Assembly (NCBI GenBank): GCA_019454045.1
Contig: SKCR01033670.1
Coordinates: 1-64,000 of the forward strand
Length of the DNA stretch: 64,000 nt
Source: Zanthoxylum bungeanum
Taxonomy: Eukaryota > Streptophyta > Magnoliopsida > Sapindales > Rutaceae
Reading direction: 5' to 3'
Shown here: piece by piece, positions 2,211-51,440 of the stretch
How the letters are laid out: each line of letters starts with the position of its first letter
Position numbering within the stretch: the stretch's first letter is position 1
Position numbers and translations under genes: made by a program
The notes under the pieces: model-generated
What the model saw: the letters and a program-made list of their open reading frames with translations, nothing else
What the model was told of the DNA's origin: nothing
Database searches by the model: none

Positions 2211-3079
2211 GCACAGGGCGCAAGTTAGCAAGTCCGGCGCATGCTGGGAGTCGCGACGCGCAGGAAGTCATCGTCGCGACGCGTAAAAGACAAAAAACAT
2301 CCCTGTTGACGCATTTTTGTCCATTTTTGCCCTAAATTGCCTCCAATGCTTTCCAAACTTTATTTATCTGCAAAATAACAACAAAACACATCCAAAACGT
2401 TCATAAAACTCTAGAAACAATACAAAACATTAAGCTAAATGAGTGGGAAAAAGTGATATATTTACCACTCATCAAGGGGCGAGATGAGGTTTCTGATGGG
2501 AGACATGACAGATCTAATAGTAGACAATATTCTCCGCAGCTGAGAAACAGCGGGGTACCACCCAGAGGCACCCAGAGTGCACCTCATATAGGACAGTTCT
2601 GTGGGGTTCAACCTGAGCAGGTCTATAGTGGAGGCACAATACCATCTGTTGATCAGAGTGCAGCGAGTGTAGCATCTCGACCGACTAGCACACGACGATG
2701 CTATAATTATGGTCAGGAGGGACATATCAGCACACAATACAACATGGCAAAGAGATGTTACAAATGTAAGCAGGTTATACATTTAGCCAGAGATTGTTCC
2801 GCTGGTGATGGATCTCGAGGAGTTGAGCAAGGAACATGAGGAGTAGTGACAGCATGATGTGGTAGAGGGACTAGTTCTGGTAGTAGTCGTGGGCGAGGCT
2901 CGGGTTTCCCACAGGGCAGAGGCAGAGAGACTCCGAGTGGTGCATATGGTGGTAGAGGATAGATATCTCAGACATATACTGCACCCGATGCTGACAGGGG
3001 ACACATTTTTGCCATGACAGATCATGAGGTACATGATGGTGGTGATGTTGTATCTGGTATAGTTTGAGTATCAAGTATA

Positions 3080-3643
3080 CTTGTCCGAGCTCTTTTTGAT
3101 ACGGGTTCTACATATTCTTTTATTGCCACTACTTGTATTCATTGTTTGGGTAGTGTAGCGGAGTCCAACATGATTACTTTGATCGTGAGTCTTTCTTCGG
3201 GGAAGGACATCATGATAGATGCAGTATACAGAGGATTGCGTGTGGAGATTGATGGGAGACAGCTACCAGTTTTACTTTACCCGTTAGTGATGGAGGACTT
3301 CAGTCTGATTTTAGGGATGAATTGGCTGACAGCTCATGTAGCCGTTATCGATTGTAGTGGTAAAGAAGTGAGGTTTAGGTTGGATGACAGGGAGTTCAAG
3401 GTAGTCAGTGATCATGGTCGTGTTGTGGCACCTATCATTTATGCCATGTCGGCTTGTAGAATGATCAGACAATGGTGTAAAGACTTTTTAGCGAATATTG
3501 TTACAGTAGAGGATAGTGAATCAACGCAGATAGCAGATATTCCAGTTGTGAGGAAGTACCATGACGTGTTTCTTGATGAGTTACCAGGATTTCCTTTACG
3601 TAGAGATCTTATGACTTCCACTGCCCCTATTTCGATAACTTGA
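3080..3643 (+). pseudogene. Protease region of element A
   Basis: Aspartic protease of the gypsy polyprotein. The active-site triad DTG is visible at 3098-3106 (FDTGSTYSF), followed about 70 residues later by the ILGMNWL motif typical of gypsy protease ends, and then by the linker into RT (VVRKYHDVFLDELPG). A stop precedes the active site and another ends the open stretch. It would have cleaved Gag-Pol. The preceding 2841-3080 is a glycine/arginine-rich gag-protease linker with stops. Confidence 0.85.
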
Positions 3644-4330
3644 TACCGTATGGCCCCGGCAGAAATGAAGGAATTGAAAGAACAATTGCAAGATGTGTTA
3701 GATTGAGGATTTATTCAGCCAAGTGTTTCACCTTGGGGAGCACCAGTATTGTTTGTGAAAAAGAAAGATGAGACCTTAAGATTGTGTATCGATTATCGTC
3801 AGCTCAATAAGGTAATGGTTAAGAATCGGTATCTGTTGCCTCGTATCAATGATTCATTTGATCAACTTTAGGGAGCCTCGGTGTTCTCAAAAATCAATCT
3901 TCGATCGGGATATCATCAGATGAGGATTCGAGATGTGGATATTTTGAAGATTGCATTCCGCACTAGATACAATCATTATGAGTTCCTAGTGATGTCATTC
4001 AGACTTAGTAATGCACCTGCAACATTCATGGGTTTGATGAATAGAGTGTTCCAACCGTATTTGGATAAGTTTGTTGTAGTATTTATTGATGACATCATTG
4101 TGTATTCGTCCTCTCGGATTTATCATGAGCATCACATTCGATTGGTATTTGATATTTTGAGGAGCAGTTATATGACAAGTTCTCCAAATGTGAGTTTTGG
4201 CTGGATATGGTGGTGTTTCTGGACACATCATCTCTGTAGAGGGTATCTATGTAGTTCCGCAGAAGGTCGAATCAATTTTGAAGCGGGAGAGACCAAGAAC
4301 GGCAATAGAGGTTCAGAGTTTCTTGGGATT
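3644..4330 (+). pseudogene. Reverse transcriptase of element A
   Basis: RT core with the usual motifs: [13 protein letters not shown] near 3780, [14 protein letters not shown] near 3890, and a catalytic box FIDD in place of YVDD near 4085. In-frame stops occur near 3700 and 3870, and a frameshift follows the catalytic box near 4160. Non-functional. It would have made element cDNA in virus-like particles. Confidence 0.88.
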
Positions 4331-4880
4331 AGCAGGCTACTACCGTCACTTTATCTGAGACTTCTCTATTATTGCTACTCCGATTACTCTGTTGACGAGA
4401 AAAAAATACCATTTGTGTGGACTGGCGATTATGAGAGGAGCTTCCAGATTTTGAAAGAGAAATTGACTACTGCACCAGTTCTCACTCTACCATCTAGACT
4501 TGATGGATATGTGGTTTATACGGATGCATCACATCAGAGATTAGGATGTGTGATGATGCAACATGGGAGAGTGATTGCGTATGCCTTGAGACATTTAAAT
4601 ACCCATGAGAAGAATTATCCCACCCATGATCTAGAGTTGGAAGTGACTGTACACGCTCTTAAGATTTGGAGGTATTATCTATATGGTGCCAATGGTGAGA
4701 TTTATACCGACCATAAAAGCCTGAAATATCTTCCCACTCAGAGAGAGTTGAATTTCAGGCAGATATGTTGGATGGAGTTCCTCAGTGACTATGATTGAAC
4801 TATTAATTACTATCCGGGGAAGGCAAATGTAGTTGCTGACACACTCAGTAGAAAGAACATGGGTATACTGTAATTTCTGA
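4331..4880 (+). pseudogene. RNase H of element A
   Basis: RNase H domain joined to RT. The first catalytic aspartate lies in YTDAS (about 4518), the glutamate position is replaced in the [10 protein letters not shown] stretch, and a further aspartate is in YTDHKSL. The tail YYPGKANVVADTLSRK (about 4805-4855) is the classic gypsy RNase H end, with a stop just before it at 4797. About 4870-5085 is a decayed linker to integrase with several stops. Confidence 0.85.
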
Positions 4881-12649: not shown

Positions 12650-13600
12650 TCCAGACCAATTCGAATCCGACCATGGGGAAAATGCTCTGTCCTCGAGTCG
12701 ATGATAACACTCTCGGTGGGACTTAACCCGACCCCAAGCTAGCGGTACACGGCTCCGAGGGAATATCACCTCCCCGGACCAATTGAGAGCCGGCCATGGG
12801 GAAGATGCTCCGACCCCATACCGATGATAATCCACTTGGTGGGATATAACCCGACCCCGAGCTAGCAGTACAATTGGATTCGGGGGGATGTCACCTCCCC
12901 GAACCAATTAAGAGTCGGCCATAGGGAAGATGCTCCGACCCCATGCCGATAATAATCCACTTAGTGAGACGTAACCCATAGCAGTACACTTGGCTCCAAG
13001 GGAATGACACATCCCCGGACAAATTGAGAGTCGACCATGGGGGAGATGCTCCGACCCTATGCCGATGATAATCCATTCGGTGGGACGTAATCCGATCCCG
13101 AGCTAACAGTACACTTGGCTCCGAGGGAATGTTATCTCCCCGGACTAATTGAGAGCCGGCCATGAGAGAGATACTCTGACCCCTTGCCAATAATAATCCA
13201 CTTGGTAGGACATAACCTGACCTCGAGCTAGCAGAACACTTGCCTCCGAGGGAATGTCACCTCCCCGGACCAATTGAGAGCCGGCCATGGGGAGATGCTC
13301 CGATCCCATGATAATCCACTCGTTGGGACTTAACCCGACCGCAAGGTAGCAATACATTTGGCTCCGAGGGAATGACACCTCCCCGGACCAATTGAGAGCC
13401 AGCCATGAGGGAGATGCTCCGACCCCATGCCGATGATTATCTACTCGGTGGGACATAACCCGACCTCGAGGTAGCAGTACACTTGGCTCCGATGGAATGT
13501 CACCTCCCCGGACCATTTGAGAATCGGTCATGGGGGAGATGTTCTGACCCCATGCCGATGATAATCCACTCGGTGGTACGTAACCCGACCCCGATCTAAT
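12650..13600. repeat. Tandem array, about 125-bp unit, 7-8 copies (element D)
   Basis: Units contain GACCAATTGAGAGCCGGCC and CGACCCCGAGCTAGCAGTAC; the GGACCAATTGAG block recurs near 12776, 12901, 13017, 13142, 13267, 13385 and 13510. Copies differ by substitutions and short indels. Long minus-strand ORFs here are by-products of the repeat. It lies between the antisense gene and gag, the hypervariable region of Tat elements. 12473-12649 has nothing recognisable. Confidence 0.92.
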
Positions 13601-14196: not shown

Positions 14197-14619
14197 TGGG
14201 TTTTTGGCAAAGGGCGCGGCGGAAGCGCTGTTCGGGCGAAATCGTAATTTTAAAACCTTTTCAAATTACCGAAAAAATTATTCAATATCTAACATGAATA
14301 ATTTATTCATATTTCACCTAAACACAGTTATTCGATATCAAATAACGACATAAATATAAAAGAAACGTCGTGAAATTTTTACGAAAATATTTTTCCGCAA
14401 AATGGCGTAAAACGGGTTTTTGACCGAACCGACCACCCAACACTTATGGGGACGGCCCAGGTCAGCCCCAATAGTGTTAGGGAAGTTCATGGGCTGCACG
14501 AACAGTGAAAAATTATTTTTTGGACAGCCAACACCCGGTTGGCTCAAAAGTCACATGGTAATGCCGTTTTTCACCGTTTTTGCTTATTTTAACTCCGAAA
14601 CAATTTCCGGAAATTGTTC

Positions 14620-16490
14620 TGACCAGTGCGAAATCACACGCGTATAACGCAAGTGCACGTATCGTTCAAGTAGTATAAAAAGTATCGATCCCACGAGGAA
14701 TTAATACATAATCTATTAATTTTATGAGGCCAAATGATTACTAGTATCTATTGGATTGATTGTTTGATTGGAATGGTGACTTTAAAATTAAAACAAGTAT
14801 ATAAAAAGGTGCGAAAGTAGATTGAGGAAAATTCAAATTTATAAAACTATCCAAGGTTGTGATTTCTTCCAATATATTTTTAAAGATGAAGTGGTTATTT
14901 CATATTTGTGAAATATATTGGTTTACTAACCTGGAACACGAAATTCTGCAAAAGCCTCTGTCGATGGTCAGATTCAAATACCAGTGTAACCCAATTAAAT
15001 TATATGTCTATGTTAACCAAGTTACCTGAATTCATTAAAATTAAGTTCCAATTATGGCTACCCCGCCCAACAGGTATATGTCTATCCTGTAAGGAAATCT
15101 ATTAAAAGGTTATCTATCCTCAACGAATATCGTGGGCTATTAAGTTTAAGGCTAAAACCTAAAATTCCTTTCTCAAGTTGATTTTAAGTTTACCAGATCA
15201 ATCTTATTAATTGCCAGTTAACAAGAAGCATTAAGCTTAAGACTTAATAAGTAAACCTTTATATACCCAAACTATAAAATAACAGACATAAAGTAAAATG
15301 CTGAAAAGTAAATGCTGGAAATTAAAAAGGAAAAAGTACAATAAAAGAAAATGCTAGGGTTAAAGGATCCACTTTTATTACTACTATTTTAGATATCTCC
15401 CTTAATATAATATATTAACTTGTGTGATATTACCAACCAGCCATATAGACGGTATCCTGATTAAGTCAAATTAATAATTAATTACCAACCGACCAACCAG
15501 GCGGTATCCATGCTTAGTCAGGTTAAAACCAATTTAATATCAATTACCAACCGGCCAATATAGCGGTATCATCATTAAGTCGGGTTTTAAATAGTTATTA
15601 TATTATAATTAAGGGAGATTAATATAAGTAGTAATAATAAAAGTTTTACCTTTCACCATAGCAGGAGGAAGTTACCTCTTCATTCCTGAATAATAAAAAT
15701 TGAAAAAGTAAAGAAAGTAAATTACTATTACAAAAGTAAATAAAATTAATTATAAAACTAAAATTAAAACAAACTAGATACAAACTCTTTAGAATTATCA
15801 GAGAATTACATAGAGGAAGGTACATTTGAAACTGAAATTTCGAGCTGAATTTATAGGCGTCAGTACGCCTCTCGCGTCGCGACACATGGATTGATCTTGT
15901 GTCGCGACACGATGATGTGTCACACGCTGATTAGTTCTTTGATTCCCATATCTGCTGATGTGGAATTTTGGATGATTAACTCAATAATTGTGCTGACGTG
16001 GCGACATGTGGCGATGTTGATTATCGGCACCGTGTGATTGTGACACGTGTCACAAGATGATTGTCTCATGATGATGTGGCTGACACAAGGCACGCTGACT
16101 CGGCATGTGTCTGATGTGGATGCCACGTGGCGATGGCGATTGTTGGCAGCATGTGATGATGACACGTGGCATGCGCATGTTAGCAAGATCTGGTGCACGT
16201 TAGCAAGATCAAACTTCTCAGATTTTGACATATGTCCCGACACATTTTAGTAGGCTCCCGGTGCACATTAGCGGTCGCGACGCAGGCTGCGCGTCACGAC
16301 GCGCTAATGACCATTTTGCCATTTTATCCGTATTTCATTGTTTTGGTCCCGAATCACCTCCAGAGAGTCCTGAAACTTTATTTATCTACAAAATAACACA
16401 AAACACATCAAAATATTCACAAAGCTCAAGAAACTATACAAAATATTATGTCAAATGAGTGGGAAATAGTGATATATTTACCACTCATCA
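14620..16490 (-). mobile_element. 3' LTR of the Athila-derived element
   Basis: 1871 bp, TGACCAGTGCG to CCACTCATCA. Against the 5' LTR it lacks about 100 bp (partner region near 22818-22920) and has only about two of the four short repeats around 16170-16215. G-box-like motifs are fewer and more mutated than in the partner. Confidence 0.93.
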
Positions 16491-16503
16491 CACCCCCAAA
16501 CCT
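16491..16503 (-). other. Polypurine tract of the Athila-derived element
   Basis: Read on the minus strand, AGGTTTGGGGGTG directly precedes the 3' LTR start TGATGAGTGG. It would prime plus-strand DNA synthesis. Confidence 0.8.
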
Positions 16504-17801
16504 AACATTTTGCTAGTCCTCGAGCAAAACAACAAAATAAAATAACATAAACATCTTTAAAATAAAATTAAATTAAGCCACTTTCGTAGGGATCACGGTT
16601 GCATTTAGCGTATGCAACAATCCTTTAAACCCCTAGGTGTCCCTAGTGGACGAGTTGTAGTCTCGTGAGGGCTTACAACTACGATACCCACAAACGTTTT
16701 ACAAAAGTAAAAAAAAAATAGAAAAACTAATGCACACAAAAACAAAAAGACAAGAGAAAAAAGAATAAAGAAGTTAGTGACTAATTAGGTGAAACTTCTT
16801 ATCCAAGTTTAGAGTTGTTTTTTTTCTTTCTAAATTACTGAATAAGTAAATTCTCCGATTATTTTTATCATTCTCCATACACACAACCAACAAAATATTA
16901 ATCAACTCATTTTTTCCCATAATAGTCTCAAGTGTAGTTGAAAAGAAGATAATATTTTTGTCCTAAAGTTATATCAGAATTCACATTTTTTTTAGCAATT
17001 AAATACTTTTATGATTTTTTCTGATTTTTTTTTATATACAATATCTTCCATCCGTGTAGCGAGCTTTAGGCCAGTGACTCCCAAACCAGTTGGCTTTAGG
17101 GCACTAGGTGTTATGACACCCATACGGACTTAATTACTCGGACTTGAGATATATATACATATATATTTTTGTAACATCTTTGATCCATGTAGTAAGATTT
17201 GGGCCAGTGGCTCCCAAACCAGTTGGTTTTAGGGCACTAGGTGTTGAAACACCCCTACGGACTTAATAACTCGGATCTCAGACGTTTTTTTTATCCCATC
17301 GATTTTTTAAGATGCTTTCTCCAATTAAACCAGAGCACTGAATATTACAAACTTGTCAATTACAACTCATGTCTGTATGTTACCATGCAAGTTGATAATA
17401 CCTGTCAACTGAGCATATGAAGATTCATTTTAATCAGTTTTATGGAGAACTCACAAATTAAATAATTTAAAAGGAAATAAACAAAAATTAACTTGTTTCG
17501 AAATAGGTTGAGATACGTCTCAGGAGTGGAAACTCCTTACACAGCTATCTTACACCAATTTCACCCGATTAATCAAATTAAAAACACAAAATATTTTTTT
17601 AATTTTTGTAAAAAAATTTCATTTTTTTTTCATTTTGAAAAAAACAATAATAAAAAAAATAACTATACAAAACAAGATACTAATCAACTATTCCCCTCCC
17701 CCAAACCTAAATGAGACATTGTTCCCAATGTCTTAAAAATAAGAAGATGAGTTCAGAAGAGAGTACCTGGTTAGCTGAAATTCTATATCTAAATGGGAAA
17801 T
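16504..17801 (-). other. 3' untranslated region of the Athila-derived element
   Basis: 1.3 kb between LOG and the PPT, AT-rich with long A/T runs and no ORF of interest. It includes a block CCTAGGTGTCCCTAGTGGAC (about 16632) and the duplicated segment listed next. Confidence 0.6.
17050..17285. repeat. Two direct copies of a roughly 100-bp segment
   Basis: 17054-17145 and 17190-17278 share CAAACCAGTTGG, TTTAGGGCACTAGGTGTT, ACACCC and TACGGACTTAAT. They lie in the 3' region of the Athila-derived element. Confidence 0.85.
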
Positions 17802-18455
17802 TTAAAGGTTAAGATCCAGATTTATTCGACGCTTCTTACCACGATCATCATCAGACCATTTTATCTTGGAAATGATAGGGTCAATTTGTGATTCATAGGC
17901 TAAGATTTGGTCAATTAAATCCTGGGCAGTTCTGGCAGTGAAGAGGATTTCTTTTAAAGGTTTTGACATGAACCCATTTCTTCGGGCATCATCAAGAAAT
18001 ACACAAAGAAAATCATAAAATCCATCTGCGTTGAACAGTCCAATTGGTTTCTGGTGTATGTTCAAGTTTGCCCAAGATAACACTGTAAAAATCTCCTCTA
18101 ACGTACCCAAACCACATGGCAAAGCAATAAAAGCATCGGCACGGTTAATCATTTCCACCAGTCGTTCAGACATACCAGGCATGATCAGTTCTTCTCCGTT
18201 TGATAATCATATAAGATCCGCATCTACCAAGGGTTTTGGGATAATTCTCAGAACTTGACTACCTCATTGCTGTACAGCCTTTGAAACTATCCCCATTAGT
18301 CCAAGATTGCCACCGCCATATACTAGGTGCATATTCCTTTCGGCTAAGACTCGTCTCAATTCATGTGCTGCTGCTACATATTGTGGCTTAGTACCAACAC
18401 TAGTACCGCAAAACACACAGATGTTTTCAACTCTTCTTTTTGAAGTATCTTCCAT
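17802..18455 (-). pseudogene. LOG: Captured LOG cytokinin riboside monophosphate phosphoribohydrolase, two stops
   Basis: LOG enzymes release active cytokinin bases from cytokinin nucleoside 5'-monophosphates in the cytosol. From MEDTSKRRVENICVFCG (an upstream in-frame ATG is at 18479) the frame runs 217 codons, the family's normal size, with no intron, although plant LOG genes have several. Motifs seen: CVFCGTS, YGGGNLGLMG, IIPK, ADAFIALP, GLGTLEE, KPIGLFNADGFYD. The nucleotide motif PGGxGTxxE reads PCGLGTLEE, so one glycine is cysteine, while the catalytic-region glutamates remain. TGA at about 18264 and TGA at about 18210 interrupt it. The C-terminus is basic (GKKRR) followed by LDLNL, an EAR-like motif. 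It lies in sense with the element, between the CRP-like ORF and the PPT. GGGN and GLGT differ from usual plant LOGs (GGGS, GYGT), so the donor may not be the host. Confidence 0.9.
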
Positions 18456-18479
18456 TTTTATGTATTTCTTTCTCAGCAT

Positions 18480-18715
18480 TGGATGCCTTCAAGAGTGCAA
18501 TGATGAGTTGAATTTATAATACCTGAAAAATGGTGATTAATAATAGCACTAGTACCTGCCAAATGACAATTATTAGATAAACAGTACAGTATATCCTGAA
18601 AGTCAAAAGGTCTGGATCCTGTCGGAGAAACTAAAAGAAAACAACAAAACAAATCACAATTATTAGGAAAAAAATAAAGAGATATAATATTTACAATAAT
18701 TTACAGTTTGATTGG
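18480..18715 (-). other. Spacer between CRP-like ORF and LOG
   Basis: About 240 bp, AT-rich, no ORF. It contains the 5' leader of LOG. No splice or promoter signal is clear. Confidence 0.5.
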
Positions 18716-18718
18716 CGT

Positions 18719-19267
18719 CTATGCGTCAGGGACAAGCTTCCCATCCAATTTTCTTAAAAATTGGCAAACATGGTCTTTTTGAGTCAGATTCCCGAGACTT
18801 AACTGTTGTCTTTCTCTTTGGAATTGTGTATATAACACGCGAATTTCGTGATACACATATCCACTGGGATGCATCTCAAGAGTTTTAGATATGTCATCTA
18901 AAGACTCATTACTCAAGCCATCCCTAATGAAATTTATCTTATCTTCACGGTTATCAGACACCATTCTTAAAGAACGACAACGAGTATCACAAAACATACG
19001 AGCACATTTATGACATACACCCATTCTTTTAGCTCTTCTTTTTTTAGCATAGGTGCTTCTTCCTAAACCAGGCATATGTGAAATAAAAGAGTCAGAGGAC
19101 TCACCTGCCAATCGGACCCGTGCTTCAATAATCCAACGAATGTCAGTAGGAATACATTTTATCATCAGTAGTCTCATTCGTTCTAAGCGAGCTTTGTAGA
19201 CTTTCATCAGAGATTTTTGAGGGAGAGAAGGAAATTGCTTGTGAAGATTTGCGAGAGCTTCTTCCAT
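18719..19267 (-). CDS. Cysteine-rich ORF resembling carlavirus nucleic-acid-binding protein
   Basis: Open 182-codon ORF with a clear ATG, in sense with the element. Residues about 72-84 read GRSTYAKKRRAKR, an arginine-rich nuclear/RNA-binding motif, directly followed by CHKCARMFCDTRC (C-x2-C-x4-C-x3-C) and later NFIRDG. This order of GRSxYA, a basic run, a cysteine cluster and FI-x-(D/E)-G is that of the carlavirus cysteine-rich protein (Pfam Carla_C4), which in those RNA viruses binds nucleic acid, enters the nucleus and can act against silencing. At 182 residues it is longer than the viral proteins (about 100), with added helical ends. It sits 190 bp after integrase, beyond an Athila-type GGAGGCAACCCATGC junction block. 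Assignment is from motif memory; an unrelated zinc-finger protein is possible. It is the only uninterrupted ORF of the element. Confidence 0.6.
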   Translation of the reverse strand: MEEALANLHKQFPSLPQKSLMKVYKARLERMRLLMIKCIPTDIRWIIEARVRLAGESSDSFISHMPGLGRSTYAKKRRAKRMGVCHKCARMFCDTRCRSLRMVSDNREDKINFIRDGLSNESLDDISKTLEMHPSGYVYHEIRVLYTQFQRERQQLSLGNLTQKDHVCQFLRKLDGKLVPDA

Positions 19268-19459
19268 CGTGAAATGACTTTACCTGCAAAAATTAAACAC
19301 ACAAAAATAAAACACACCAGATCACAATATATACACAAATTGCATGGGTTGCCTCCATGCTAGCGCTAAGTTTAACGTCGTCAGCTAGACGTGACTGCCT
19401 GAATGTTAGGCTGGATCTGAAAGTGTGACACTTTCTTTTTGTCGCTCAAATGAATCTCC

Positions 19460-19830
19460 CTAGTAGTGCTTGACACGCTTGTTTTTAACCTTGAATATTT
19501 TGTTGGAGTCGGGATCATGTATCTCAATGGCTCTATCTGGTAAAACCTTGGTGATTAGGAATGGACCTAACCACCGTGATTTTGGCTTCCATGGGAAGAG
19601 TTTCAACTTTGATTTGTTTAACAGTACCCTCTGCCCTGGTTCTAGTGGTATGCGCACTAACTTCTCATCATGTCTCTTCTTGGCCTTTTCTTTGTACAGT
19701 TTAACATTCTCAAAAGGCTGTATGTGAAATTCCTCCAATTCATTGAGCTGGTGGAACTGTTTCTCTTCTGTTGCTTGTAGTGCAAGAATAGGCTTCTTTA
19801 GTACGCAGAACGCTTTATCTTTAGGCTCCA
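19460..19830 (-). pseudogene. Integrase C-terminus of the Athila-derived element
   Basis: The end of pol: QLNELEEFHIQPFENVKLYK, EPGQRVLLNKSKLKLFPWK, SRWLGPFLI and the final RVKHY then stop are the GPF/Y-type C-terminal domain of Athila integrase. It is fused in frame to the protease part upstream in one 199-codon ORF (19460-20059). RT, RNase H, the integrase zinc domain and the DDE core are missing, an in-frame deletion near 19830. It cannot integrate DNA. Confidence 0.85.
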
Positions 19831-20570
19831 CAGACAGTTTGTCAGTAGAACTTTGCATTGCATTGGAGTTCTGGATGGTACTATGTATCACATCAAGTCT
19901 GAAACATTCCTCCTTCTTTTCGTTATCCGGGAATTCCATGGCTTTGAAAACATTGAATTTTACTTCTTGGTCTTGTACCCTCATGGTTAGTTCTCCTTTT
20001 TGTACATCAATAATGGTTCGACCTGTAGCCAAGAATGGTCTTCCGAGTATGATCGGCACGTCTTCGTCTTCCTACATATCAAGGACAATAAAATCTGTTG
20101 GGAAAATGAATTTGTCAACTTTGACCAGCACATCTTCAATTACACCTCTCGGAAATACGAGCGTTCTATCAGCAAGTTGCAGAGAGACTGATGTGGGAAT
20201 TGTTTCTCCAATCTCTAATTTCCTGAAAATAGAAAAAGGCATCAAGTTAACACTCGCACCTAGATCACACAAAGCCCTACCAAAGTTATGTTCTCCTATG
20301 ATGCAAGGAATGGTGAAACTGCCAGGATCTTTCAACTTTGGGGGAAGCTTCCTCTGAATGATGGCGCTGCATTCTTCCGTCAATGCTACTGTCTCGTAAT
20401 CTCCCAATCTCCATTTTTGTGAAAGAATGTCTTTCATTAATTTGACATAGCTGGGCATTTGTTCCAAAGCTTCTGCAAATGGAATGTTGATATGCAGCTT
20501 TTTGAACACCTCCAAGAATCGAGCAAACTACTAGTCCTGTTTGTTTTTCTGAAGACGCTGTGGAAAAGGT
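19831..20570 (-). pseudogene. Protease region of the Athila-derived element
   Basis: FKKLHINIPFAEALEQMPSY starts the conserved Athila block, then LTEECSAI, the active site CDLGASVNLMPFS (near 20255) and PIILGRPFLATGRT. DLGAS rather than DTGAS is normal for Athila. A stop between 20059 and 20072 splits it. Confidence 0.88.
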
Positions 20571-22037
20571 GGAGGTAGAGTGATTTGATATTTTTCCGTT
20601 GCTTTTTTTTATTTTCTTTTTTTTCCTCCATATGTTGCTCTTTTTCTTTTGGAATTTCTTCAATAGTTGCCTTGATTACAACATCTTTGTTGATCTCAAT
20701 ACCGCTTTTCAAAGTAATGGCTTGACATTGCTCTTCCTTCGGTTCCTTGGATTTGGTTATGTGTTGCTGGGAAGGTACCCTGACGGTCTGTAACTCTAAG
20801 CATTGGCCAGTTGTCCAATTTGATTCTCTAGTGCTTTAATAGAGGCATATTGGCTTTGAAATATTGCATCGTATGCTGCTTGTTGCTTTTTGAACATCTC
20901 TGCAATCCATTCTTTCATTTCTGGTTCTTTTTCATGCTCCTGGCCTTTGTTCTGTTGCTGGAATCCAGACGATGGATAGTTCTTTTGCCCTGAGTTGTTG
21001 CTTCATGAAAAATTGGGATGATTCCTCCACCATGGGTTGTAGGTGTTGGAATATGGATTGTTCCTCTGTCTATTGAAATTGTTGACGAAATTCACCGTTT
21101 CTTGAAGTTGGTTTGGTTCTAGTGCTCCTCCATATTGTGAACTTGTGGATCCAATGTTGCTTTGCGTGCTGAGAGTCTCCATGAATTTACATATCTGATC
21201 CAGCATGGACTGTTGTATTGGCTCCAACTTAATAAATTCCAGGAATTCTTTGAATCATGCTCCTTTCTGTTGGCCAGAAGGAATTATTGTTATCCATTTC
21301 TTTGATTAGGTCTCATGCTTGATCTTCTCATTTTTCCATCAAAGCTCCTCCAGCAGTAGCATCAATTGTGGTTTTCATTAGTCCAGAAATTCCATTATAG
21401 AATGTTTGGACTTGAAGCCATTTTGGAATCTCATGGTGAGGACATTTCCGGAGCAAATATTTGTACCTTTTCCAAGCTTCGTAGAGAGTTTCCGAGTCTT
21501 GTTGTACAAAAGATGTGATGTCATTCCTCAGTTTTGTTGTTCTGGATGGTGGAAAGTACTTTGCGAGGAATTTGGTGGCTAGAGTGTTCCAAGTTGTGAT
21601 GGAACCTGCTGGTAGTGAATGTAGCCAAGCTTTTGCTATGTCTTTCAAGGAATATGGAAAAACTCGCAGTCTCATTGCTTCTTTAGCTCCTCGGTTGTAA
21701 TTGAAAGTGCCACAAACTTCCAGGAAGTTGCTGATGTGGGCATTAGGATCTTCAGTTGCATTCCCCCAAACTGAACTGACTGCTGAATCATCTAAATGCA
21801 TGTTTTGATGTCACACGCATTTTCTGGTAAGGGAGGAAGTACAATACAGGAAATGAAGCCGTCAACCACCAGAATGGTTCTATTTCAAATGGGAATTGGT
21901 GGTGCAACTTCTAAAGGTTCAGGTTCTATGTTAACGATGTCTTCTTGGCCTTCTCACATTTTCCTTCTCAATTGTCCGATAGTTCTTTCAATTTCTGGGT
22001 CAAACGGTCGAAGTTCAAAGCTTCTAGTTCGTCTCAT
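20571..22037 (-). pseudogene. gag of the Athila-derived element
   Basis: Starts at MRRTRSFELRPFDPEIERT (22037), 107 bp after the PBS, the Athila position and wording. The capsid core is at 21801-21328 (PNAHISNFLEVC, WLHSLPAGSITTW, KFLAKYFPPSRT, KCPHHEIPKWLQVQTFYNG). The downstream half (21227-20571) has frameshifts, a lysine-rich stretch (KKKIKK) and stops. No zinc knuckle is seen, as in Athila. It would have formed the particle; it is broken here. Confidence 0.9.
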
Positions 22038-22143
22038 GTAGTGTCTGAGAACCTGAAACACAAGAAAACAAAAAAATAAGAAAAAAGAAATTAGACACAA
22101 GTAACATATCTAAGCTCAAAACTAATAGTGAAATATAACTAAG

Positions 22144-22161
22144 TCCCCGATAACAGCGCCA
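22144..22161 (-). other. Primer-binding site of the Athila-derived element
   Basis: Minus strand TGGCGCTGTTATCGGGGA, six bases inside the 5' LTR. It fits, with two or three changes, the tRNA-Asp-type PBS used by Athila elements. Confidence 0.8.
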
Positions 22162-23473
22162 AAAACTTGACCGGTGCGAAATCACACGCGTATAACGCAA
22201 GCGTACGTAGTATAAAAAGTATCGAGCCCACGAGGAATTAATACCTAATCTATTAATTTTATGAGGCCAAATGATTACTAGTATCTATTGGATTGATTGT
22301 TTGATTGGAATGGTGATTTTAAAATTAAAACAAGTATATAAAACGGTGCGAAAGTAGATTGAGGAAAATTCAAATTTATAAAACTATCCAAGGTTGTGAT
22401 TTCTTCCAATATCTTTTTAAAGATGAAGTGTTTATTTCATATTTGTGAAATATATTGGTTTACTAACCTGGAACACGAAATTCTACAAAAGCCTATGTTG
22501 ATGGTCAGATTCAAATACCAGTGTAACCCAATTAAATCATATGTCTATGTTAACCAAGTTACCTGAATTCATTAAAATTAAGTTCCAATTATGGCTACCC
22601 CGCCCAACAGGTATATGTCTATCCTGTAAGGAAATCTATTAAAGGGTTATCTATCCTCAAGGAATATCGTGGGCTTTAAGTCTAAGGCTAAAACATAAAA
22701 TTCTTTTGTCAAGTTGATTTTAAGTTTACCAGATCAATCTTATTAATTTCCAGTTAACAAGAAGCATTAAGCTTAAGACTTAATAAGTAAACTTTTATAT
22801 TACCCAAACTATAAAATAACCCCTTATAAACCGATGATATTGGAATTCATCACAACCCCAGATAACGGGCTTAGTTACGACTCATATTTACAACTAGTAA
22901 AAACTTAAGAATAAAAGACATAAAGTAAAATGATGAAATGTAAATGCTAGAAATTAAAAAGGAAAAAGTACAATTACAGAAAATGCTAGGGTTAAAGGAT
23001 CCACTTTTATTACTACTATTTTAGATATCTCCCTTAATATAATATATTAACTTGTGTGATATTACTAACCAGCCATATAGGCGGTATCCTGACTAAATCA
23101 AATTAATATTTAATTACCAACCGACCAACCAGACGGTATCCATGCATAGTCAGGTTAAAACCAATTTAATATCAATTACCAACCGGCCAATATAGCGGTA
23201 TCCTCATTAAGTCATGTTTTAAATAGTTATTATATTATAATTAAGGGATATTAATCTAAATAGCAATAATAAAAATTTTACTTTTCACCCTAGTAGGGGG
23301 AAATTACCTCTTCATTGCTGAATAATAAAAACTGAAAAAGTAAATTACTATTACAAAAAGTAAATAAAATTAATTACAAAACTGAAATTAAAACAAACTA
23401 GATACAAACTCCTTAGAATTATCAGAGAATTACAGAGAGGAAAGTACATTTGAAACTGAAATTTCGAGCTGAA

Positions 23474-23830
23474 TTTATAGGCGTCAGTAGGCCTCTCGCG
23501 TCGCGACGCGTGGATTGATCTTGTGTCACGACGCGATGATGTGGCACACGCTGATTGGCTGCTTTGATTCCCTTATCTGCAGACGTGGTATTTTGGATGA
23601 TTAACTCAATAATTGTGCTGACGTGGCGATGACGTGGCGACACGTGGTGATGTTGATTGTCGGCACCGTGTGATTGTGACACGTATCATGAGAAGATTGG
23701 CTGATAATGACATGGCTGACACGTGGCATGCTGACTTGGCATGTGTTTGATGTGGATGCCACGTGGCTAACACATGGATGACACGTGGACGACACATGGC
23801 GATGGCGATTGTCGGCAGCATGTGATGATG
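23474..23830 (-). promoter_or_regulatory. LTR promoter with TATA box and CACGTG/ACGTGG array
   Basis: Minus strand CCTATAAATTC (about 23473-23483) is the likely TATA box. Upstream in transcription sense are many ACGTGGC/CACGTG motifs (23600-23830), several exact CACGTG. Same plan as in the solo LTR at 689-2474. Confidence 0.6.
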
Positions 23831-23844
23831 ACTCGTGGCAGGCG

Positions 23845-23920
23845 CACGTTAGCAAGATCGGCGCACGTTAGCAAGATCCGACGCATGTTAGCAAGATCCG
23901 GTGCACGTTAGTAAGATCAA
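23845..23920. repeat. Four tandem copies of a roughly 20-bp unit
   Basis: Units of the type GCGCACGTTAGCAAGATCCG. About two copies exist in the partner LTR (16165-16210) and scattered ones in the solo LTR (2155-2240), so the copy number changes between LTRs. Confidence 0.85.
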
Positions 23921-25933
23921 ATTTTTGAGATTTTGACATGTGTCCCGGCGTATTTTAGCAGGCTCCTGGCACACATTAGCTGTCGCGACGTAGGCTGCGT
24001 GTCGCGACACGTTAAATGACCATTTGGCCATTTTATCCGTATTTCATTGTTTTGGTCCCGAATCACCCCCAGAGAGTTCTGAAACTTTATTTATCTACAA
24101 AATAACACAAAACACATCAAAATATTCACAAAACTCAAGAAACTATACAAAATATTAGGTTAAATGAGTGGGAAATAGTGATGCATTTAGCACGCATCAT
24201 GTTCCAACACCCAAAACACATCCAATACATTCATAAGATATTATTTTTTATCACCATATGAACAATAATTTCAGATCTGATCCAGAAGCTATAATTATCA
24301 ATTTTTCATGCTTTAAATCCACTTTTTCAAGATTAATCCAATTAATCAAATTCACCACACATGAAGCACCCAAGAATAATTCTAGGCATTACAGGAGTGG
24401 TTATAACACTCTAGAATGGCAACATATCATCAAATGATTAAATTGGACTAATATTACAATAATATCAATGAAATCAACTTCACACATGCATATGGCCTTC
24501 CAATTCATCCACCAAATCCAAAAGCCTCAAATTTTAAGAAAAAAAGAAACCCTAGAATCTATCTAAGTCATCAAGAAACAAGAAACATATTTCCAAACTT
24601 AGGGATATAAAGAAAAATTACCTTTATTCTCCTATTCCTTAAGCTTTTTTCTTGATTTTCTTCTTTTTATTCCTTGATCAATCAAGCAATTTGAGAGTGT
24701 TTTTGGTGTTGTTATTTTCGGCCATAGCTTCTTCAAAATGAAGAAAATAAAATTTTTTCAAATTAAATGAAGCATGACCGACATTTAAGAGCATTTTGGT
24801 CATTTTTAAAAATTAAATCAATTTATTATAATAAGATTTAATGTTAGCAAATCAAATTTGCACACATTAGGCTTAATAAAATCATGTCATGTGTTTCAAT
24901 AATAATTAAACATATTTCACAACATTTATGAAATATAGATATTATTTAACTATTCAAATATTTAACAATTAAATATCTAAATAATTAATTAATATAATTA
25001 TTATATATATGTATTTTTATTTACATTAAATAACAAATACATATATTTATGGCATGTGTCAAAGTCTCATTTGACAATTAATTAATGTGTATCTAATCAA
25101 ATTATGTATCAAATACAAATACACAATAATTATTAAATGACCAAAATTCATAATGCATGTGCTATTGTTTAACCGATTAAACGATTCGAATTAACTCATT
25201 TAATCCGATGAAGTATTATGAATAATCTGTATTATTCATTACGCGTTGCCTAAATGCTTAACGAGTACAGTTCATATTGTGGGACTCTCTAAGTTTAGGT
25301 TTATCCGTCACGGAATCCAATTTCGTGTCCATAATTCACCCACTTATGAATTATGACGACCACAGATAATCTCGCTAAACTATGCAGTCAAGGCCATTGC
25401 ATACATATAATCCCTCCGTCACAGGCTATCCATATTATACCTGGGATATAGATAAAAACGTCAAATCCTTTCGGTATAATATAGTCGACTTTCAATTTAC
25501 GATCTCTAAATAACACTCGGAACTGACTTCCGAAGTTATACCACGACCATGGATTTACTATATCGCAAACACGTGAGGATACTTATGTCATGTACACATG
25601 ACTGACATATACTCTCTTGATACGCACAGGATATCATGAGCATCAGTCCACACCCAACGAACAGACGAATGTCTGATCATGAATAGATCGGTGACGTGAC
25701 TGCCATCAAAGTGTGGAGGATAACTCATATATCCACAATGGTATCTCAAGTCGAAGTACCACTATGCTCGCTCAAATTGAGAAGATTCCTATTGACGTTG
25801 GTGTACCATCTATTATGAAATCTTCAGTGAGTCGTTCAATGTTTATGAAATAAACACCTACATATCTATATGAGTCTCCTGAGACTCATGGTTCATTGGA
25901 TAAACCATCGGACCAAGTCACGATATACGATAT

Positions 25934-31129: not shown

Positions 31130-31920
31130 ATGGCACTCCGAGAATGAGCACGGTTCGAGAATGAACAAAGTCGAGAATGGCACTCCGAGAATGGAGCAAG
31201 GTTCGGGAATGAACAAGCCGGGAATGGCACTCCGAGAATGGAGCAAGGTTCGGGAATGACCAAGCCGAGAATGGCACTCCAAGAATGGAGCACGGTTTGG
31301 GAATGAACAAAGCCGAGAATGGCACTCCGAGAATGGAGCAAGGTTCGGGAATGAACAAGCCAGGAATAACACTCCGAGAATGGAGCACGGTTCAGGAATG
31401 AACAAAGCCGAGAATGGCACTCCGAGAATGGAGCAAGGTTCGGGAATGAACAAGCCGGGAATGGCACTCCGAGAATGGAGCACGGTTCGGGAATAAACAA
31501 AGCCGAGAATGGCACTCCGAGAATGGAGCAAGGTTCAGGAATGAACAAGTCGGGAATGGCATTCGAGAATGGAGCACAATTCGGGAATGAACAAGCCGGG
31601 AATGGCACTCCGAGAATGGAGTACGGTTCGGGAATGAACAAAGCCGAGAATGGCACTCCGAGAATGGAGCAAGGTTCGGGAATGAACAAGCCGGGAATGG
31701 CACTCCGAGAATGGAGCACGGTTCAGGAATGAACAAGCCGTGAATGACACTCCGAGAATGGAGCATGGTTCGGGAATGAACAAGCCGGGAATGGCACTCC
31801 GAGAATGGAGCCCGGTTCGGGAATGAACAAAGCCGAGAATGGCACTCCAAAAATGGAGCACGGTTCGGGAATGAACAAGCCGAGAATGGCACTCCGAGAA
31901 TAGAGCACAGTTCGAGAATG
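31130..31920. repeat. Tandem array, about 47-bp unit, roughly 16 copies
   Basis: GGCACTCCGAGAATGGAGCA starts near 31179, 31226, 31272 and so on, each followed by GGTTCGGGAATGAACAAGCC. Because 47 is not a multiple of three, long ORFs open in several minus-strand frames (up to 221 codons); these are not genes. Confidence 0.95.
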
Positions 31921-39955: not shown

Positions 39956-40016
39956 CCTAGCGATAATTTGCAGACAAAGATTTTGAATTCTACCAACATT
40001 CACGGCTTAGTCACTC

Positions 40017-41507
40017 ATGGCTACAAGCAATGAACAAACACCCGATCCAGTGGCATCACAACTAGCCATGCTACAGGAGAGATTGAAAGCTTTAGAAGAG
40101 GAAAATCTAACCATATGTAATTCCAACATGAATCTTCAGAAACAGTTGGAATTGGTTTCATCACCATCCCAGCATCATGATATCTCAGATCAGCCCAACA
40201 ACCGTATCACTCCAGCTAATCTCTTGGGAGCATTTAACGAAACAATTGATAACATTCCATCCAATGATGAGGACCAGAGGGACCTGCCAAAATCTCCCAT
40301 CAACCAAGCTCAGCAAGTTGCCATCGCTATGAGAAGGGAAATGAAGGAATTTAAAGAAGCAATCATGTCCAGCCTACCAGGTGTGAAACTATCAAGAAAG
40401 AAGAGCAGAGCTGGAACCATTTCTGATACCCCCTTCACGGAGAACATCACATCCGTTGAGTTACCACGAAAGTTCAGTCCATCAGACATGAAACTATATG
40501 ATGGATCTACTGACCCAGACGACCATGTCATCCATTACAAGTACAAAATGATGTCAACTGGCTTAGCTCCTCTTCAATGGGAAGTAGGTATGTGCAGAGG
40601 ATTTGGAGAAACTTTGGGAGGCCCTGCCCTTACATGGTTCATCAATCTACCATACAGATCCATCAAGTCCTATCAACAGTTAGCAGACAAGTTTGTGGAG
40701 CATTTTGCCAGCTCTTGCAAACTTGAAAAAACTACTGACGATCTTAGTACCATACAGCAACTGAGGGGTGAATCCTTGCGAAGCTACGTGGCCCGTTTCA
40801 ACAAGGAAAGGATAACAATCCAGATCTACATCAGCCGACAGCTGTGGAAGCTTTTAGAAACGGATTACTTTGTGATAGCGGACTCTATAAAAAGTTGACC
40901 AATTTCGATGATGCTACACGTTGGACCAGGCCATGGCACGAGCTCAAGTCGAAATCAGGTGGGAAGAAGACAAGAGAAATAAAAGGAAAGATAATTCCTC
41001 CAATGTGCAGAATGAAAGGACCTCTCACACTTCCAAACGACATAAAGAATTGCAAGAATGATACCCAGGCATCATTCAGAAAAGATGAATCACCCAAGGA
41101 AAGAACACCAGCCCCTCCGAAGGGACTTTGATCGAAGACCTCTACCATACAAAGCCCGGGAAGGAGTTCTGGTGGAAAAGCCGAGACTCCCAGACTACAA
41201 TTTTTCTATTTCTCCAGGAGAATTAGTTTTGGTACTAAAAAAGATGGGAAATGAAGTAAGATGGCCTCCAAGCAACAGAGAAAACTTCAAAAAGAAAGAC
41301 ACAAGTAAATGGTGTGAATTCCATCGAGACTACGGTCATACAACGGCTGAATGTGTGGCATTAAGATTAGAAGTCCTCGAGCTGCTGAACAAGGGATTTC
41401 TAAGGGATTTACTTACAGAAAAAGGGAAAGCTAATTCGCTCAGAGAAGTGAAAAAGATGGACATGAAGAGTCGCCAATACAACCTCCACCAATCGACAAC
41501 ACAGTGA
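40017..41507 (+). pseudogene. gag of element G
   Basis: Starts MATSNEQTPDPVASQLAM with a coiled coil (residues about 15-50). The capsid domain has LYDGSTDPDDHVIHY, ALTWFINLPYRSIKSYQQL, FVEHFASS and SLRSYVARFNKE. Frameshifts near 40830 and 41060 break it. The nucleocapsid motif CEFHRDYGHTTAEC (about 41317) is the Tat-type knuckle. It would assemble the particle around element RNA. Confidence 0.92.
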
Positions 41508-42118
41508 GTTTCATTTCAGGAGGATCGGAGATCAGTGGGGTTTCGTATTCAGCAGCCAAACGACATACCAGAGCAATCATGTCAAACACTCATCATTCGA
41601 CAGTTTCTATAGAGAAAAAATTTACAAATTTGATGATGGAGTTTCCAGACGACAGCAATTCCGGAAGTATGAACCCTCATCATGATGCTTTAGTGATCTC
41701 CCTACAGGTGGCGAATTTTATGGTCAAGCGGGTTCTTGTAGATACGGGATCTTCAGCCAACATCATCTTTGCAACCGCCTTAGCAGATATGGGAGCTGAA
41801 CTAGGGAAAGTTAACAAACGAACGACGGTGTTAATCGGGTTCAGTGGTGAGCAAAAATTTACTTTGGGAGAAATAAATCTTCCAGTCTACGCAGGAGGAA
41901 TCAACCAAATGACTACTTTCCTAGTTCTGGATTGTCCTTCAGCCTACAATCTTATCATCGGTAGACCATGGATTCATGAAATGAGGGCTGTATCATCCAC
42001 TTATCATCAAACACTAAAGTTTCCTACGAAGTGGGGAGTTCAGGAAATAAGGGGCGATAGGACTGGCTCGAGAGGATGCTACCAGACGACAATGAAAGCT
42101 AAGATCCATTCAGCATAG
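41504..42118 (+). pseudogene. Protease of element G
   Basis: Active site VLVDTGSSANIIF at about 41730-41770 and LIIGRPWIHEM near 41950 mark an intact-looking aspartic protease. The frame closes at 42116, so it is separated from RT by a stop. The 5' part overlaps gag by four bases in another frame. Confidence 0.9.
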
Positions 42119-42142
42119 CAATTATAGAGCGGGCCTCATCCT

Positions 42143-43645: not shown

Positions 43646-44195
43646 ATGAAGAAGTCAGTTCAATCCAGACCACATCACTTTGGAATCTTGCAGTCGACGG
43701 TTCCAGCAATAAGAAAGGATGCTGTCTTGGGTGGTGATCACTACTCCTGATGGAGATATACTACGTCAAGTAATCAAATGTGGATTCAGGGTTACAAACA
43801 ATGAGGCGGAATATGAGGCGTTGTTAGCAGGAATCAGTTTGGCTAAAGAACTTGGAGCAAGCAGAATAAAAGTGGTATCAGATTCTCAACTAATTGTCAA
43901 CCAACTCCAAGGATCATATCAAGCCCGAGATCCTCAAATGTCATCCTACTTAAAGAAAGTGAAAGAAATCCAGTCGACGTTTGAAGAATTTACAATAACC
44001 CAAGTTCCGAGAAGCGAGAATACTCAAGCAGACGCATTGGCTACCCTTGGGTCGACGATGCAGGAGGATAAACCACAATCCATTCCGGTAGTGTATTTGA
44101 ATTGGCCAGCAATTTGGAAAGAAAGCAAGGAGATCACCACCATCACATCAAGCGACTCATGGATGACGCCACTCATGAAATATTTACAAGAATGA
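43646..44195 (+). pseudogene. Second (archaeal-type) RNase H of element G
   Basis: The extra RNase H typical of Tat/Ogre elements. VDGSSNKKG (about 43693), NNEAEYEALLAG (43797), SDSQLIVNQL (43880) and TQADALATLG (44023) give the four acidic positions. A frameshift near 43725 separates the first acidic residue from the rest. It would remove the RNA strand during reverse transcription. Confidence 0.88.
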
Positions 44196-51262: not shown

Positions 51263-51440
51263 AGAAGACATAATGGCCTCGGTGGAACGAATCCAGCCCC
51301 GAGCCGAATAACCATGTGGCCTCGGCGGAATGAATCCAGCCCCGAGCCGAATAACCAAGTGGCTTCGGCGGGACGAATCCAGCCCTGAGCCTAATTACCA
51401 AGTGGCCTCGACGTAACGAATCCAGCCCCGAGCCGACTAA
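51263..51440. repeat. Short tandem array, about 49-bp unit (unit C)
   Basis: Units GGCCTCGGCGGAATGAATCC ... AGCCCCGAGCCGA, about four copies. 51441-51770 is non-coding. Confidence 0.88.

What the first reader, a model, noticed from the sequence alone, without database searches (positions are those of the whole stretch)
14620..24199. Retrotransposon carrying a virus-like silencing-suppressor candidate and a cytokinin-activating enzyme
Seen: one insertion with exact TSD, LTRs, PBS and PPT, holding in sense order gag, protease, the integrase tail, a 182-codon cysteine-rich ORF and an intronless LOG. Known: Athila elements often have an env-like ORF at this place; LOG makes active cytokinin, which supports meristem cells; carlavirus cysteine-rich proteins bind nucleic acid and can counter silencing. 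Inference: the pair could help an element that must be copied in meristem cells under RNA silencing. I know of no described plant retroelement with this pair.
Basis: partly seen in the sequence, partly recalled or inferred. Interest (0 to 1): 0.93.

Follow-up and report, generated by a model that had tools for sequence, protein, structure and literature searches.

The report
Athila-type retrotransposon with two accessory genes
A multi-copy plant jumping gene carries, and evolution seems to have kept, a protein resembling a plant-virus silencing suppressor and a remodelled hormone-enzyme relative that has probably lost its hormone-making job and gained a nuclear-type tail.

Summary
A minus-strand LTR element (14620-24199, TSD TGTTC, LTRs 93.8% identical) carries an intact 182-aa CRP scoring above Pfam cut-offs for virus nucleic-acid-binding proteins and, downstream, a LOG-like gene broken by two stops in this copy. 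In the host genome (3.96 Gb) the CRP gave 46,596 loose candidates; the 150 scored are 88% or more identical. Of 25 places read (chosen by CRP similarity), all 25 have LOG sequence just downstream; 19 share a loss of RT/RH/integrase core, five keep integrase core. Pairwise dN/dS is 0.28 (CRP) and 0.35 (LOG), like gag and pro; variants shared between copies favour third positions, singletons do not. CRP relatives occur in Populus, Xanthoceras, Rhamnella and Orobanche; a separate contig has integrase followed by CRP. The cytokinin reading is weak: element-type LOGs mostly lack the pocket Lys (kept in 2 of 108) and Glu (1 of 118) that 120 of 120 compared cellular LOGs keep, and most have a basic plus LxLxL tail that none of those has. 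Best reading: two nuclear accessory proteins; silencing suppression is plausible but untested. LOG capture was known; the CRP was not found in print.

The parts
14615..14619 (.). target-site duplication TGTTC (one side)
14620..16490 (-). 3' LTR (1871 bp)
16491..16506 (-). polypurine tract abutting the 3' LTR
17040..17282 (-). 110-bp direct duplication in the 3' non-coding part
   Evidence: 84% alike
17802..18455 (-). element-type LOG gene, intronless, two in-frame stops between 18207 and 18263; C-terminal tail KKRRINLDLNL
18719..19267 (-). intact 182-codon CRP (Viral_NABP / Carla_C4 similarity; C-x2-C-x4-C-x3-C; KKRRAKR)
19284..19303 (-). 3' splice-site-like sequence 16 nt before the CRP start (suggestive only)
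19460..20071 (-). open frame joining protease tail to integrase C-terminal part (integrase similarity runs on to 19409); RT/RH/integrase core missing
20072..20527 (-). aspartic protease frame (Pfam support weak, PF13650 E=0.24; named from position and motif)
21328..21810 (-). gag core, PF03732
22144..22161 (-). primer-binding-site-like sequence (15 of 18 of a recalled tRNA-Asp PBS)
22168..24199 (-). 5' LTR (2032 bp)
24200..24204 (.). target-site duplication TGTTC (other side)

Best explanation
This is a degraded, non-autonomous copy of an abundant Athila-type Ty3/gypsy family whose genomes carry a sense-strand 3' module: a virus-type cysteine-rich protein (CRP) followed by a LOG-derived protein. 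SHOWN: LOG sequence follows CRP at every one of the 25 places read (places chosen by CRP). Both genes show purifying selection in the replicating lineage. The pair is present both in copies with integrase core (five, four of them with RT similarity) and in 19 copies that share a loss of RT, RNase H and integrase core. INFERRED: both proteins act in the host nucleus on behalf of the element. The CRP would be a basic zinc-finger-like nucleic-acid binder, working like flexivirus CRPs (counter-silencing and/or transcription-factor-like). The LOG derivative would keep the LOG fold and phosphoribose site but no longer make cytokinin, and would instead use its NLS-like plus EAR-like (LxLxL) tail to meet TOPLESS-type co-repressors. 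They may be made from spliced RNAs, as 3'-splice-site-like sequences lie upstream. The subfamily lacking polymerase would borrow RT and integrase in trans while still supplying Gag, protease, CRP and LOG itself. The confidence covers the whole: I put the element and selection part near 0.9, 'not a cytokinin enzyme' near 0.75, and nuclear anti-silencing/co-repressor action near 0.35.
For: Anatomy. Copies: 46,596 loose candidates, 150 scored, all at or above 88% identity. LOG sequence beside CRP at 25 of 25 places; 19 share the deletion, 5 have integrase core (4 with RT similarity), 1 differs. Selection: pairwise dN/dS CRP 0.28 (23 distinct sequences), LOG 0.35 (12), gag 0.26 (9), pro 0.27 (9). 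Shared variants by codon position: CRP 19/17/40 (p=0.0006), LOG 29/20/53 (p=0.0001); singletons not biased. CRP against an independent contig, L001: dN/dS 0.22, with none of 2000 neutral simulations reaching the observed identity. Other plants: 311 CRP homologues; integrase followed by CRP in L001; protease-CRP gene model in Orobanche, P0114. CRP kinship: 46 of 48 members match Carla_C4 and 43 of 48 Viral_NABP at E<=0.01. LOG: pocket and tail contrast with 120 cellular LOGs; 26 sampled element-type LOGs form one group, 99/98; LOG fold, pLDDT 84.6. In host copies the Lys position is Leu in 23 of 24 stretches read and 20 of 20 tails are recognisable, though 1 of these 20 (L041) has an in-frame stop in its basic stretch and Phe as last residue.
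Against: No expression, localisation or activity data. The places read are among the best CRP matches, so CRP presence is by construction and CRP intactness (21 of 23 distinct sequences without a stop) is biased upward; LOG lacks a stop in only 3 of 12 full-length gap-free copies, and 13 of 25 are not full-length gap-free. For CRP the shared-versus-singleton contrast alone is weak (Fisher p=0.078). The CRP structure model is poor (pLDDT 66): no PDB match and no BFVD match at E<=0.001. Splice-site-like sequences are not rare in the element (18 sense, 10 antisense under the relaxed rule). NLS and EAR meanings are recalled motif knowledge. For none of the 120 LOG hits outside this genome did I see the DNA around it. 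The bootstrap of the LOG tree had not settled and its root is a midpoint. 39 of 106 element-type LOGs keep the pocket His and 115 of 120 the Trp.
Confidence: 0.5

Rival explanations
1. One reading: LOG is an active cytokinin enzyme that supports the meristem cells in which the element is copied, with the CRP suppressing silencing.
For: The catalytic Arg (95 of 106) and Glu (115 of 118), the PGGxGTxxE motif and the pocket Trp (115 of 120) are largely kept in the element-type set; the fold is LOG; LOG is under purifying selection.
Against: The Lys that contacts adenine/prenyl is Leu/Ile/Met in 103 of 108, and the Glu from the neighbouring subunit is replaced in 117 of 118; the compared cellular LOGs keep both in 120 of 120. 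Ala mutants of the Lys are inactive or nearly so in bacterial LOGs.
Confidence: 0.12
2. Hitch-hiking passengers: CRP and LOG are captured sequences with no benefit, carried along by a successful element.
For: LOG is broken in most copies read (3 of 12 full-length gap-free copies without a stop), and element copies in general decay.
Against: Pairwise dN/dS 0.28 and 0.35, third-position bias of shared variants, and CRPs of 59-66% identity and about the same length in named plants of different families.
Confidence: 0.05
3. The CRP is a packaging or RNA-chaperone factor for the element's own RNA (nucleocapsid-like) rather than a counter-silencing protein, and LOG is a nucleotide-binding partner.
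For: A basic, Cys-rich protein beside gag-pol; both retained in the subfamily without polymerase, as expected of proteins acting preferentially on their own RNA.
Against: Kinship to virus CRPs, some of which have known silencing-suppressor or transcription-factor activity; an LxLxL tail has no known role in packaging (recalled).
Confidence: 0.25
4. The tail and the changed pocket were inherited from an unsampled cellular LOG subfamily, so they say nothing about element biology.
For: Cellular LOGs were sampled by the best 120 hits of one query (LOG3; 7,963 proteins matched) plus LOG8 and two bacterial ones.
Against: 120 of 120 sampled cellular LOGs lack the tail; tail and changed pocket persist across about 50% sequence divergence.
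Confidence: 0.2

Closest known systems
Athila / Calypso / Diaspora lineage of plant Ty3/gypsy elements
   Same: LTR-gag-pro order, 5-bp TSD, tRNA-Asp-like PBS close to the LTR (Diaspora/Calypso PBS: PMC1142308, passages), long LTRs, sense ORF(s) between integrase and 3' LTR
   Different: The 3' ORFs are a virus-type CRP and a LOG derivative instead of an env-like ORF; plant env genes are described there as more degenerate than pol, whereas the CRP is strongly conserved. No RT tree was made here.
Athila-like elements with LOGL4-like extra ORFs (Steinbauerova et al. 2011) and YgdH domain in Citrus/Populus gypsy consensuses (Alvarado-Marchena et al. 2022)
   Same: LOG-family domain inside plant gypsy elements; probably the same capture (inference)
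   Different: The 2011 paper is not held; its abstract is recalled. Neither the CRP next to LOG, the lost pocket residues nor the C-terminal tail is in the passages of the 2022 paper that I saw.
Cysteine-rich / nucleic-acid-binding proteins of carlaviruses, allexiviruses, vitiviruses and mandariviruses (PF01623, PF05515)
   Same: Sequence kinship over residues 34-118, basic stretch followed by Cys-rich finger; some suppress silencing and one acts as a transcription factor (PMC12172455, passages)
   Different: Element CRPs are mostly longer (182 aa) with their own conserved N- and C-terminal parts, are chromosomal and multi-copy, and their function is untested
LONELY GUY phosphoribohydrolases
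   Same: Fold, PGGxGTxxE, catalytic Arg and Glu
   Different: Pocket Lys and Glu lost in nearly all; basic plus LxLxL tail gained in most
VANC anti-silencing proteins of VANDAL DNA transposons (PMC5735166 and PMC10398659, abstract starts in the listing)
   Same: A transposon-coded protein that counters host silencing
   Different: Unrelated protein and element type; VANCs are described as sequence-specific; nothing comparable has been tested here

Membership tests
LTR retrotransposon | paired LTRs, TSD, PBS, PPT | tested here: met
Athila-type Ty3/gypsy | tRNA-Asp PBS just inside the LTR | tested here: met
   15 of 18 against a recalled PBS; position close to that in PMC1142308 (6 nt here, 5 bp there)
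Athila-type Ty3/gypsy | RT/INT phylogenetic position | not tested
   RT is absent from this copy; no tree made for the copies with RT similarity
Virus CRP family (PF05515/PF01623) | score above curated Pfam cut-off | tested here: met
   35.9 vs 23 and 29.1 vs 20.9 bits; 46 (PF01623) and 43 (PF05515) of 48 relatives match at E<=0.01. Not all relatives pass the cut-off: P0079 fails both, L001 fails PF01623
Virus CRP family (PF05515/PF01623) | same fold as virus CRPs | tested here: inconclusive
   poor model; 35 weak BFVD hits, 15 of the top 20 named as silencing suppressor, RNA-binding or nucleic-acid-binding protein, none at E<=0.001
Virus silencing suppressor | suppresses RNA silencing | not testable with these tools
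   needs an assay
LOG cytokinin-activating enzyme | LOG fold with PGGxGTxxE, catalytic Arg and Glu | tested here: met
   (for the family; the window's own copy has PCGxGTxxE and two stops)
LOG cytokinin-activating enzyme | adenine/prenyl-pocket Lys and Glu | tested here: not met
   Lys 2 of 108, Glu 1 of 118, against 120 of 120 in cellular LOGs; host copies, stretches read: Leu 23 of 24, Thr/Ile 24 of 24
EAR-motif (TOPLESS-binding) protein | LxLxL-type motif | tested here: met
   LxLxL in the last 9 residues of 81 of 120 element-type and 0 of 120 cellular LOGs; motif meaning recalled
EAR-motif (TOPLESS-binding) protein | binds TOPLESS in the nucleus | not testable with these tools
   needs an assay

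The most novel reading that the evidence does not exclude
Plant Athila-type elements evolved a two-gene nuclear counter-defence cassette: a CRP of the kind RNA viruses use against silencing, plus a LOG enzyme turned into a hormone-independent co-repressor-recruiting (NLS plus EAR) protein. The cassette is so useful that elements which threw away polymerase and integrase core kept it, and it is swapped between element lineages by recombination. The flexivirus CRPs and the element CRPs share an origin, so RNA viruses and retrotransposons have traded the same counter-defence gene, possibly from element to virus.
Probability: 0.22. Interest if true: 0.88.

Novelty: new variant of a known kind. Interest (0 to 1): 0.74.

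Why it matters
Plant retrotransposons of this lineage have long been known to carry ORFs of unknown function after integrase. Here is one with a recognisable virus-type protein, found in several eudicots and under purifying selection, next to a captured hormone enzyme that looks refunctionalised. It makes two questions testable: whether LTR retrotransposons encode their own anti-silencing proteins in plants, and where the CRPs of flexiviruses come from. The non-autonomous subfamily that keeps the cassette while lacking the polymerase is a natural experiment on whether accessory proteins act on their own element.

Tried and rejected
Rejected: 'only this copy'; 'no selection'; 'active cytokinin enzyme' as leading reading; 'ordinary cellular LOG retrocopy' (sampled element-type LOGs form one group, and LOG sits beside CRP at 25 of 25 places). 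Literature: 10 searches.

Limits: the places read are among those most like this CRP, so copy statistics lean to well-kept CRPs, and copies with divergent CRPs would have been missed. The genome search is a loose first look (46,596 candidates) of which only the best 150 were scored. The cellular LOG control is the best 120 of 7,963 hits of one LOG3 query. The host plant is unnamed.
Full report
WHAT IS THERE. The finding describes a real LTR retrotransposon on the minus strand. A 5-bp target-site duplication (TGTTC) flanks LTRs at 14620-16490 and 22168-24199, which differ at 114 of 1850 aligned bases plus 11 gap events. At plant rates recalled from the literature this is about 2.5 to 4.6 million years. 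A PBS-like stretch lies 6 nt inside the 5' LTR and matches 15 of 18 bases of a recalled tRNA-Asp PBS; a polypurine tract abuts the 3' LTR. In sense order come gag (PF03732), protease (weak in Pfam, E=0.24), an in-frame join to the integrase C-terminal part, the 182-codon CRP, a 263-nt gap and LOG. No RT, RNase H or integrase core was found in the element, gag is broken, and LOG has two in-frame stops in this copy.

THE CRP IS VIRUS-TYPE. It passes the curated Pfam cut-offs for Viral_NABP (35.9 vs 23 bits) and Carla_C4 (29.1 vs 20.9). Of 48 diverse relatives, 46 match Carla_C4 and 43 match Viral_NABP at E<=0.01, though single members can fall below a cut-off (P0079 both, L001 one). Of the 120 listed, 62 are exactly 182 aa and 93 are 175-191 aa; named sources include Xanthoceras, Populus, Rhamnella and Orobanche. 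The pattern C-x2-C-x4-C-x3-C is present in 98 of 120. The AlphaFold2 model is poor (mean pLDDT 66). It finds nothing in the PDB and only weak matches among virus models: 35 at E<=10, none at E<=0.001, but 15 of the first 20 are named as silencing suppressor, RNA-binding or nucleic-acid-binding protein.

IT SITS AFTER INTEGRASE ELSEWHERE TOO. A scan of bacterial genome contigs found one relative, on a contig that I take for plant contamination from its content (L001, 3330 bp, filed under a Nomurabacteria MAG). It has an integrase frame (rve, Integrase_H2C2) at 104-1594, whose tail is 42% identical to this element's, and an intact CRP from 1799, 66% identical to the window's. No LOG is detected in its remaining 983 bases. 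The Orobanche minor gene model P0114 joins a protease piece (42% identical to the window's) to a CRP (56%). Window against L001 CRP: dN 0.24, dS 1.06, ratio 0.22. Of 2000 neutral simulations, 11 kept the frame open and none reached the observed 66% protein identity.

COPIES IN THE HOST GENOME. The genome search answered once: 3.96 Gb, 51,709 contigs, 46,596 loose first-look CRP candidates, of which the best 150 were scored. All are at or above 88% identity and, by my count of the 150 rows, 117 have no internal stop and 33 have one or more. I read 25 places, the window's own included: 8 loci given and 20 stretches, of which three are the same place twice. They hold 23 distinct CRP sequences: L031/L032 and L051/L052 are identical there. 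CRP is present by construction. LOG similarity lies directly downstream of CRP at 25 of 25, in some only as a part (L049: 42 residues). Nineteen have the window's structure, protease followed by the integrase C-terminal part only, at nearly the same spacing (226-245 nt from the hit coordinates). Five have integrase-core similarity (L034, L041, L043, L046, L047), four of them also RT similarity, at 26-34% to an RT probe from another element in the window. One, L037, is different: protease followed by a nearly full-length integrase at 40% identity, no RT found. So a non-autonomous subfamily with what looks like one shared deletion has spread while keeping gag, protease, CRP and LOG sequence. Own-LTR identities over the parts held (588 to 1789 columns) run from 84 to 95% in nine copies.

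SELECTION. Mean pairwise dN/dS (Nei-Gojobori): CRP 0.28 (23 distinct sequences), LOG 0.35 (12 gap-free full-length copies of 25), gag 0.26 (9), pro 0.27 (9). Variants seen in one copy only are spread roughly evenly over codon positions (CRP 36/36/47, LOG 68/46/44), as expected after insertion. Variants shared by two or more copies favour third positions (CRP 19/17/40, p=0.0006; LOG 29/20/53, p=0.0001). The contrast between the two classes is clear for LOG (p=0.0001) and weaker for CRP (p=0.078). Copies without a stop: CRP 21 of 23, LOG 3 of 12, gag 5 of 9, pro 5 of 9. Copies were chosen by CRP similarity, so CRP intactness is biased upward; LOG was not used for choosing.

MODULE EXCHANGE. Between the 19 deletion-type and the 5 integrase-bearing copies the integrase tail has a median dS of 0.93, but CRP 0.18 and LOG 0.30. 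CRP similarity decided which copies were seen, so the CRP value is partly built in; LOG was not selected and shows the same. The simplest reading is that 3' modules have been exchanged between the two lineages, as template switching would do.

LOG IS PROBABLY NOT THE ENZYME IT SEEMS. The open 134-aa piece of the window's LOG found 270 relatives at E<=0.001. Intact 217-aa ones exist, and many rows come from different loci of one genome (Reevesia pubescens). I compared the 120 listed with the best 120 of 7,963 cellular-type LOGs found with Arabidopsis LOG3. In CgLOG numbering, of residues read: Arg99 is kept in 95 of 106 and Glu122 in 115 of 118, but Lys100 in 2 of 108 and Glu125 in 1 of 118; His97 in 39 of 106 and Trp129 in 115 of 120. 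All six are kept in 120 of 120 of the comparison set. In CgLOG, Arg99 and Glu122 are the proposed catalytic residues, while Met96, His97, Lys100, Glu125 and Trp129 form the proposed prenyl site; alanine at the AMP-binding residues, Lys100 among them, costs nearly all activity, and alanine at the equivalent Lys costs all activity in CgLOG-II (PMC4979012, PMC5379747; passages read). Most element-type LOGs end in a basic cluster followed by alternating Leu: LxLxL within the last 9 residues in 81 of 120, against 0 of 120; several that lack it are truncated. In the host copies the Lys position is Leu in 23 of 24 stretches read, the Glu position Thr or Ile in 24 of 24, and 20 of 20 tails read are recognisable, though 1 of these 20 (L041) has an in-frame stop in its basic stretch and Phe as last residue. 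In a tree of 43 rows, 26 element-type LOGs form one group (99/98) apart from 15 cellular and 2 bacterial ones; the bootstrap had not quite settled, and the root is a midpoint. The model has the LOG fold (mean pLDDT 84.6, TM 0.94 to 2a33 normalised by the target), with very low confidence in the tail. That such a tail is an NLS plus EAR motif able to bind TOPLESS is recalled motif knowledge, not a result.

MECHANISM. Most likely the two proteins are nuclear helpers of the element. Virus CRPs of this kind include silencing suppressors and one that acts as a transcription factor (PMC12172455, passages), which fits a counter-silencing or transcription role for the CRP. The LOG derivative more likely recruits or titrates co-repressors than makes hormone. 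Retention in the subfamily without polymerase suggests that the proteins favour their own element or its RNA. Splice-acceptor-like sequences lie 16 nt before the CRP start and between CRP and LOG, and one lies between integrase and CRP in L001, but such sequences are common (element: 18 sense, 10 antisense; L001: 4 and 4). Apart from the cited passages and counts, this paragraph is inference.

NOVELTY. LOG-family domains in Citrus and Populus gypsy elements are in print (PMC9289625, section 12 read), citing Steinbauerova et al. 2011, which is not held and which I recall as reporting two Athila-like elements with LOGL4 similarity. The passages I saw of Neumann et al. 2019 say that extra ORFs were counted from 250 codons up (PMC6317226), which would miss both ORFs here. 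I found no paper on a CRP/NABP-like ORF in a plant retrotransposon with the searches (listings, and passages of PMC3136472), nor on an EAR motif in one (listing). The library holds only open-licence papers, so this is weak evidence of absence. Filed as a new variant of a known kind.

Noticed in passing
window 21428-21534 (+): The only Rfam match at gathering threshold in the window, snoR71 (RF00097, 42 bits against a gathering score of 40), lies antisense inside the element's gag region; it may be a retrotransposon-derived false match of that family.
   Followed up: no
L034, L041, L043, L046, L047 against the 19 deletion-type copies: CRP-LOG module much closer than the integrase tail between two lineages of the same family (median dS 0.18 and 0.30 against 0.93), suggesting exchange of 3' modules.
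   Followed up: partly
L037: A copy with protease followed by a divergent, nearly full-length integrase and no RT detected: a different arrangement from the common deletion.
   Followed up: no
window 17040-17282: 110-bp segment duplicated in direct orientation in the element's 3' non-coding part (84% alike), with a second polypurine-like run near 17696.
   Followed up: no
window 40011-45503 (+) and 3068-4798 (+): Other Ty3/gypsy-type remains: gag, RT-RNase H and integrase frames at 40-45.5 kb, protease and RT-RNase H at 3-4.8 kb.
   Followed up: no
window 50651-53458 and 56354-58083: A composite of an 83-bp and a 134-bp tandem array occurs twice about 5.7 kb apart in direct orientation, as if inside two LTRs of another element.
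   Followed up: no
window 12654-13598 and 31130-31920: Tandem arrays of 125-bp and 47-bp units; the first lies about 1 kb from the element.
   Followed up: no
L051/L052 and L031/L032: Pairs of contigs with identical CRP DNA and similar hit layouts, possibly segmental or assembly duplicates; identical sequences were merged for dN/dS.
   Followed up: partly
L001 (DAIEQH010000041.1): A contig filed under a Candidatus Nomurabacteria MAG carries plant-type retrotransposon genes, so that MAG is probably contaminated.
   Followed up: partly
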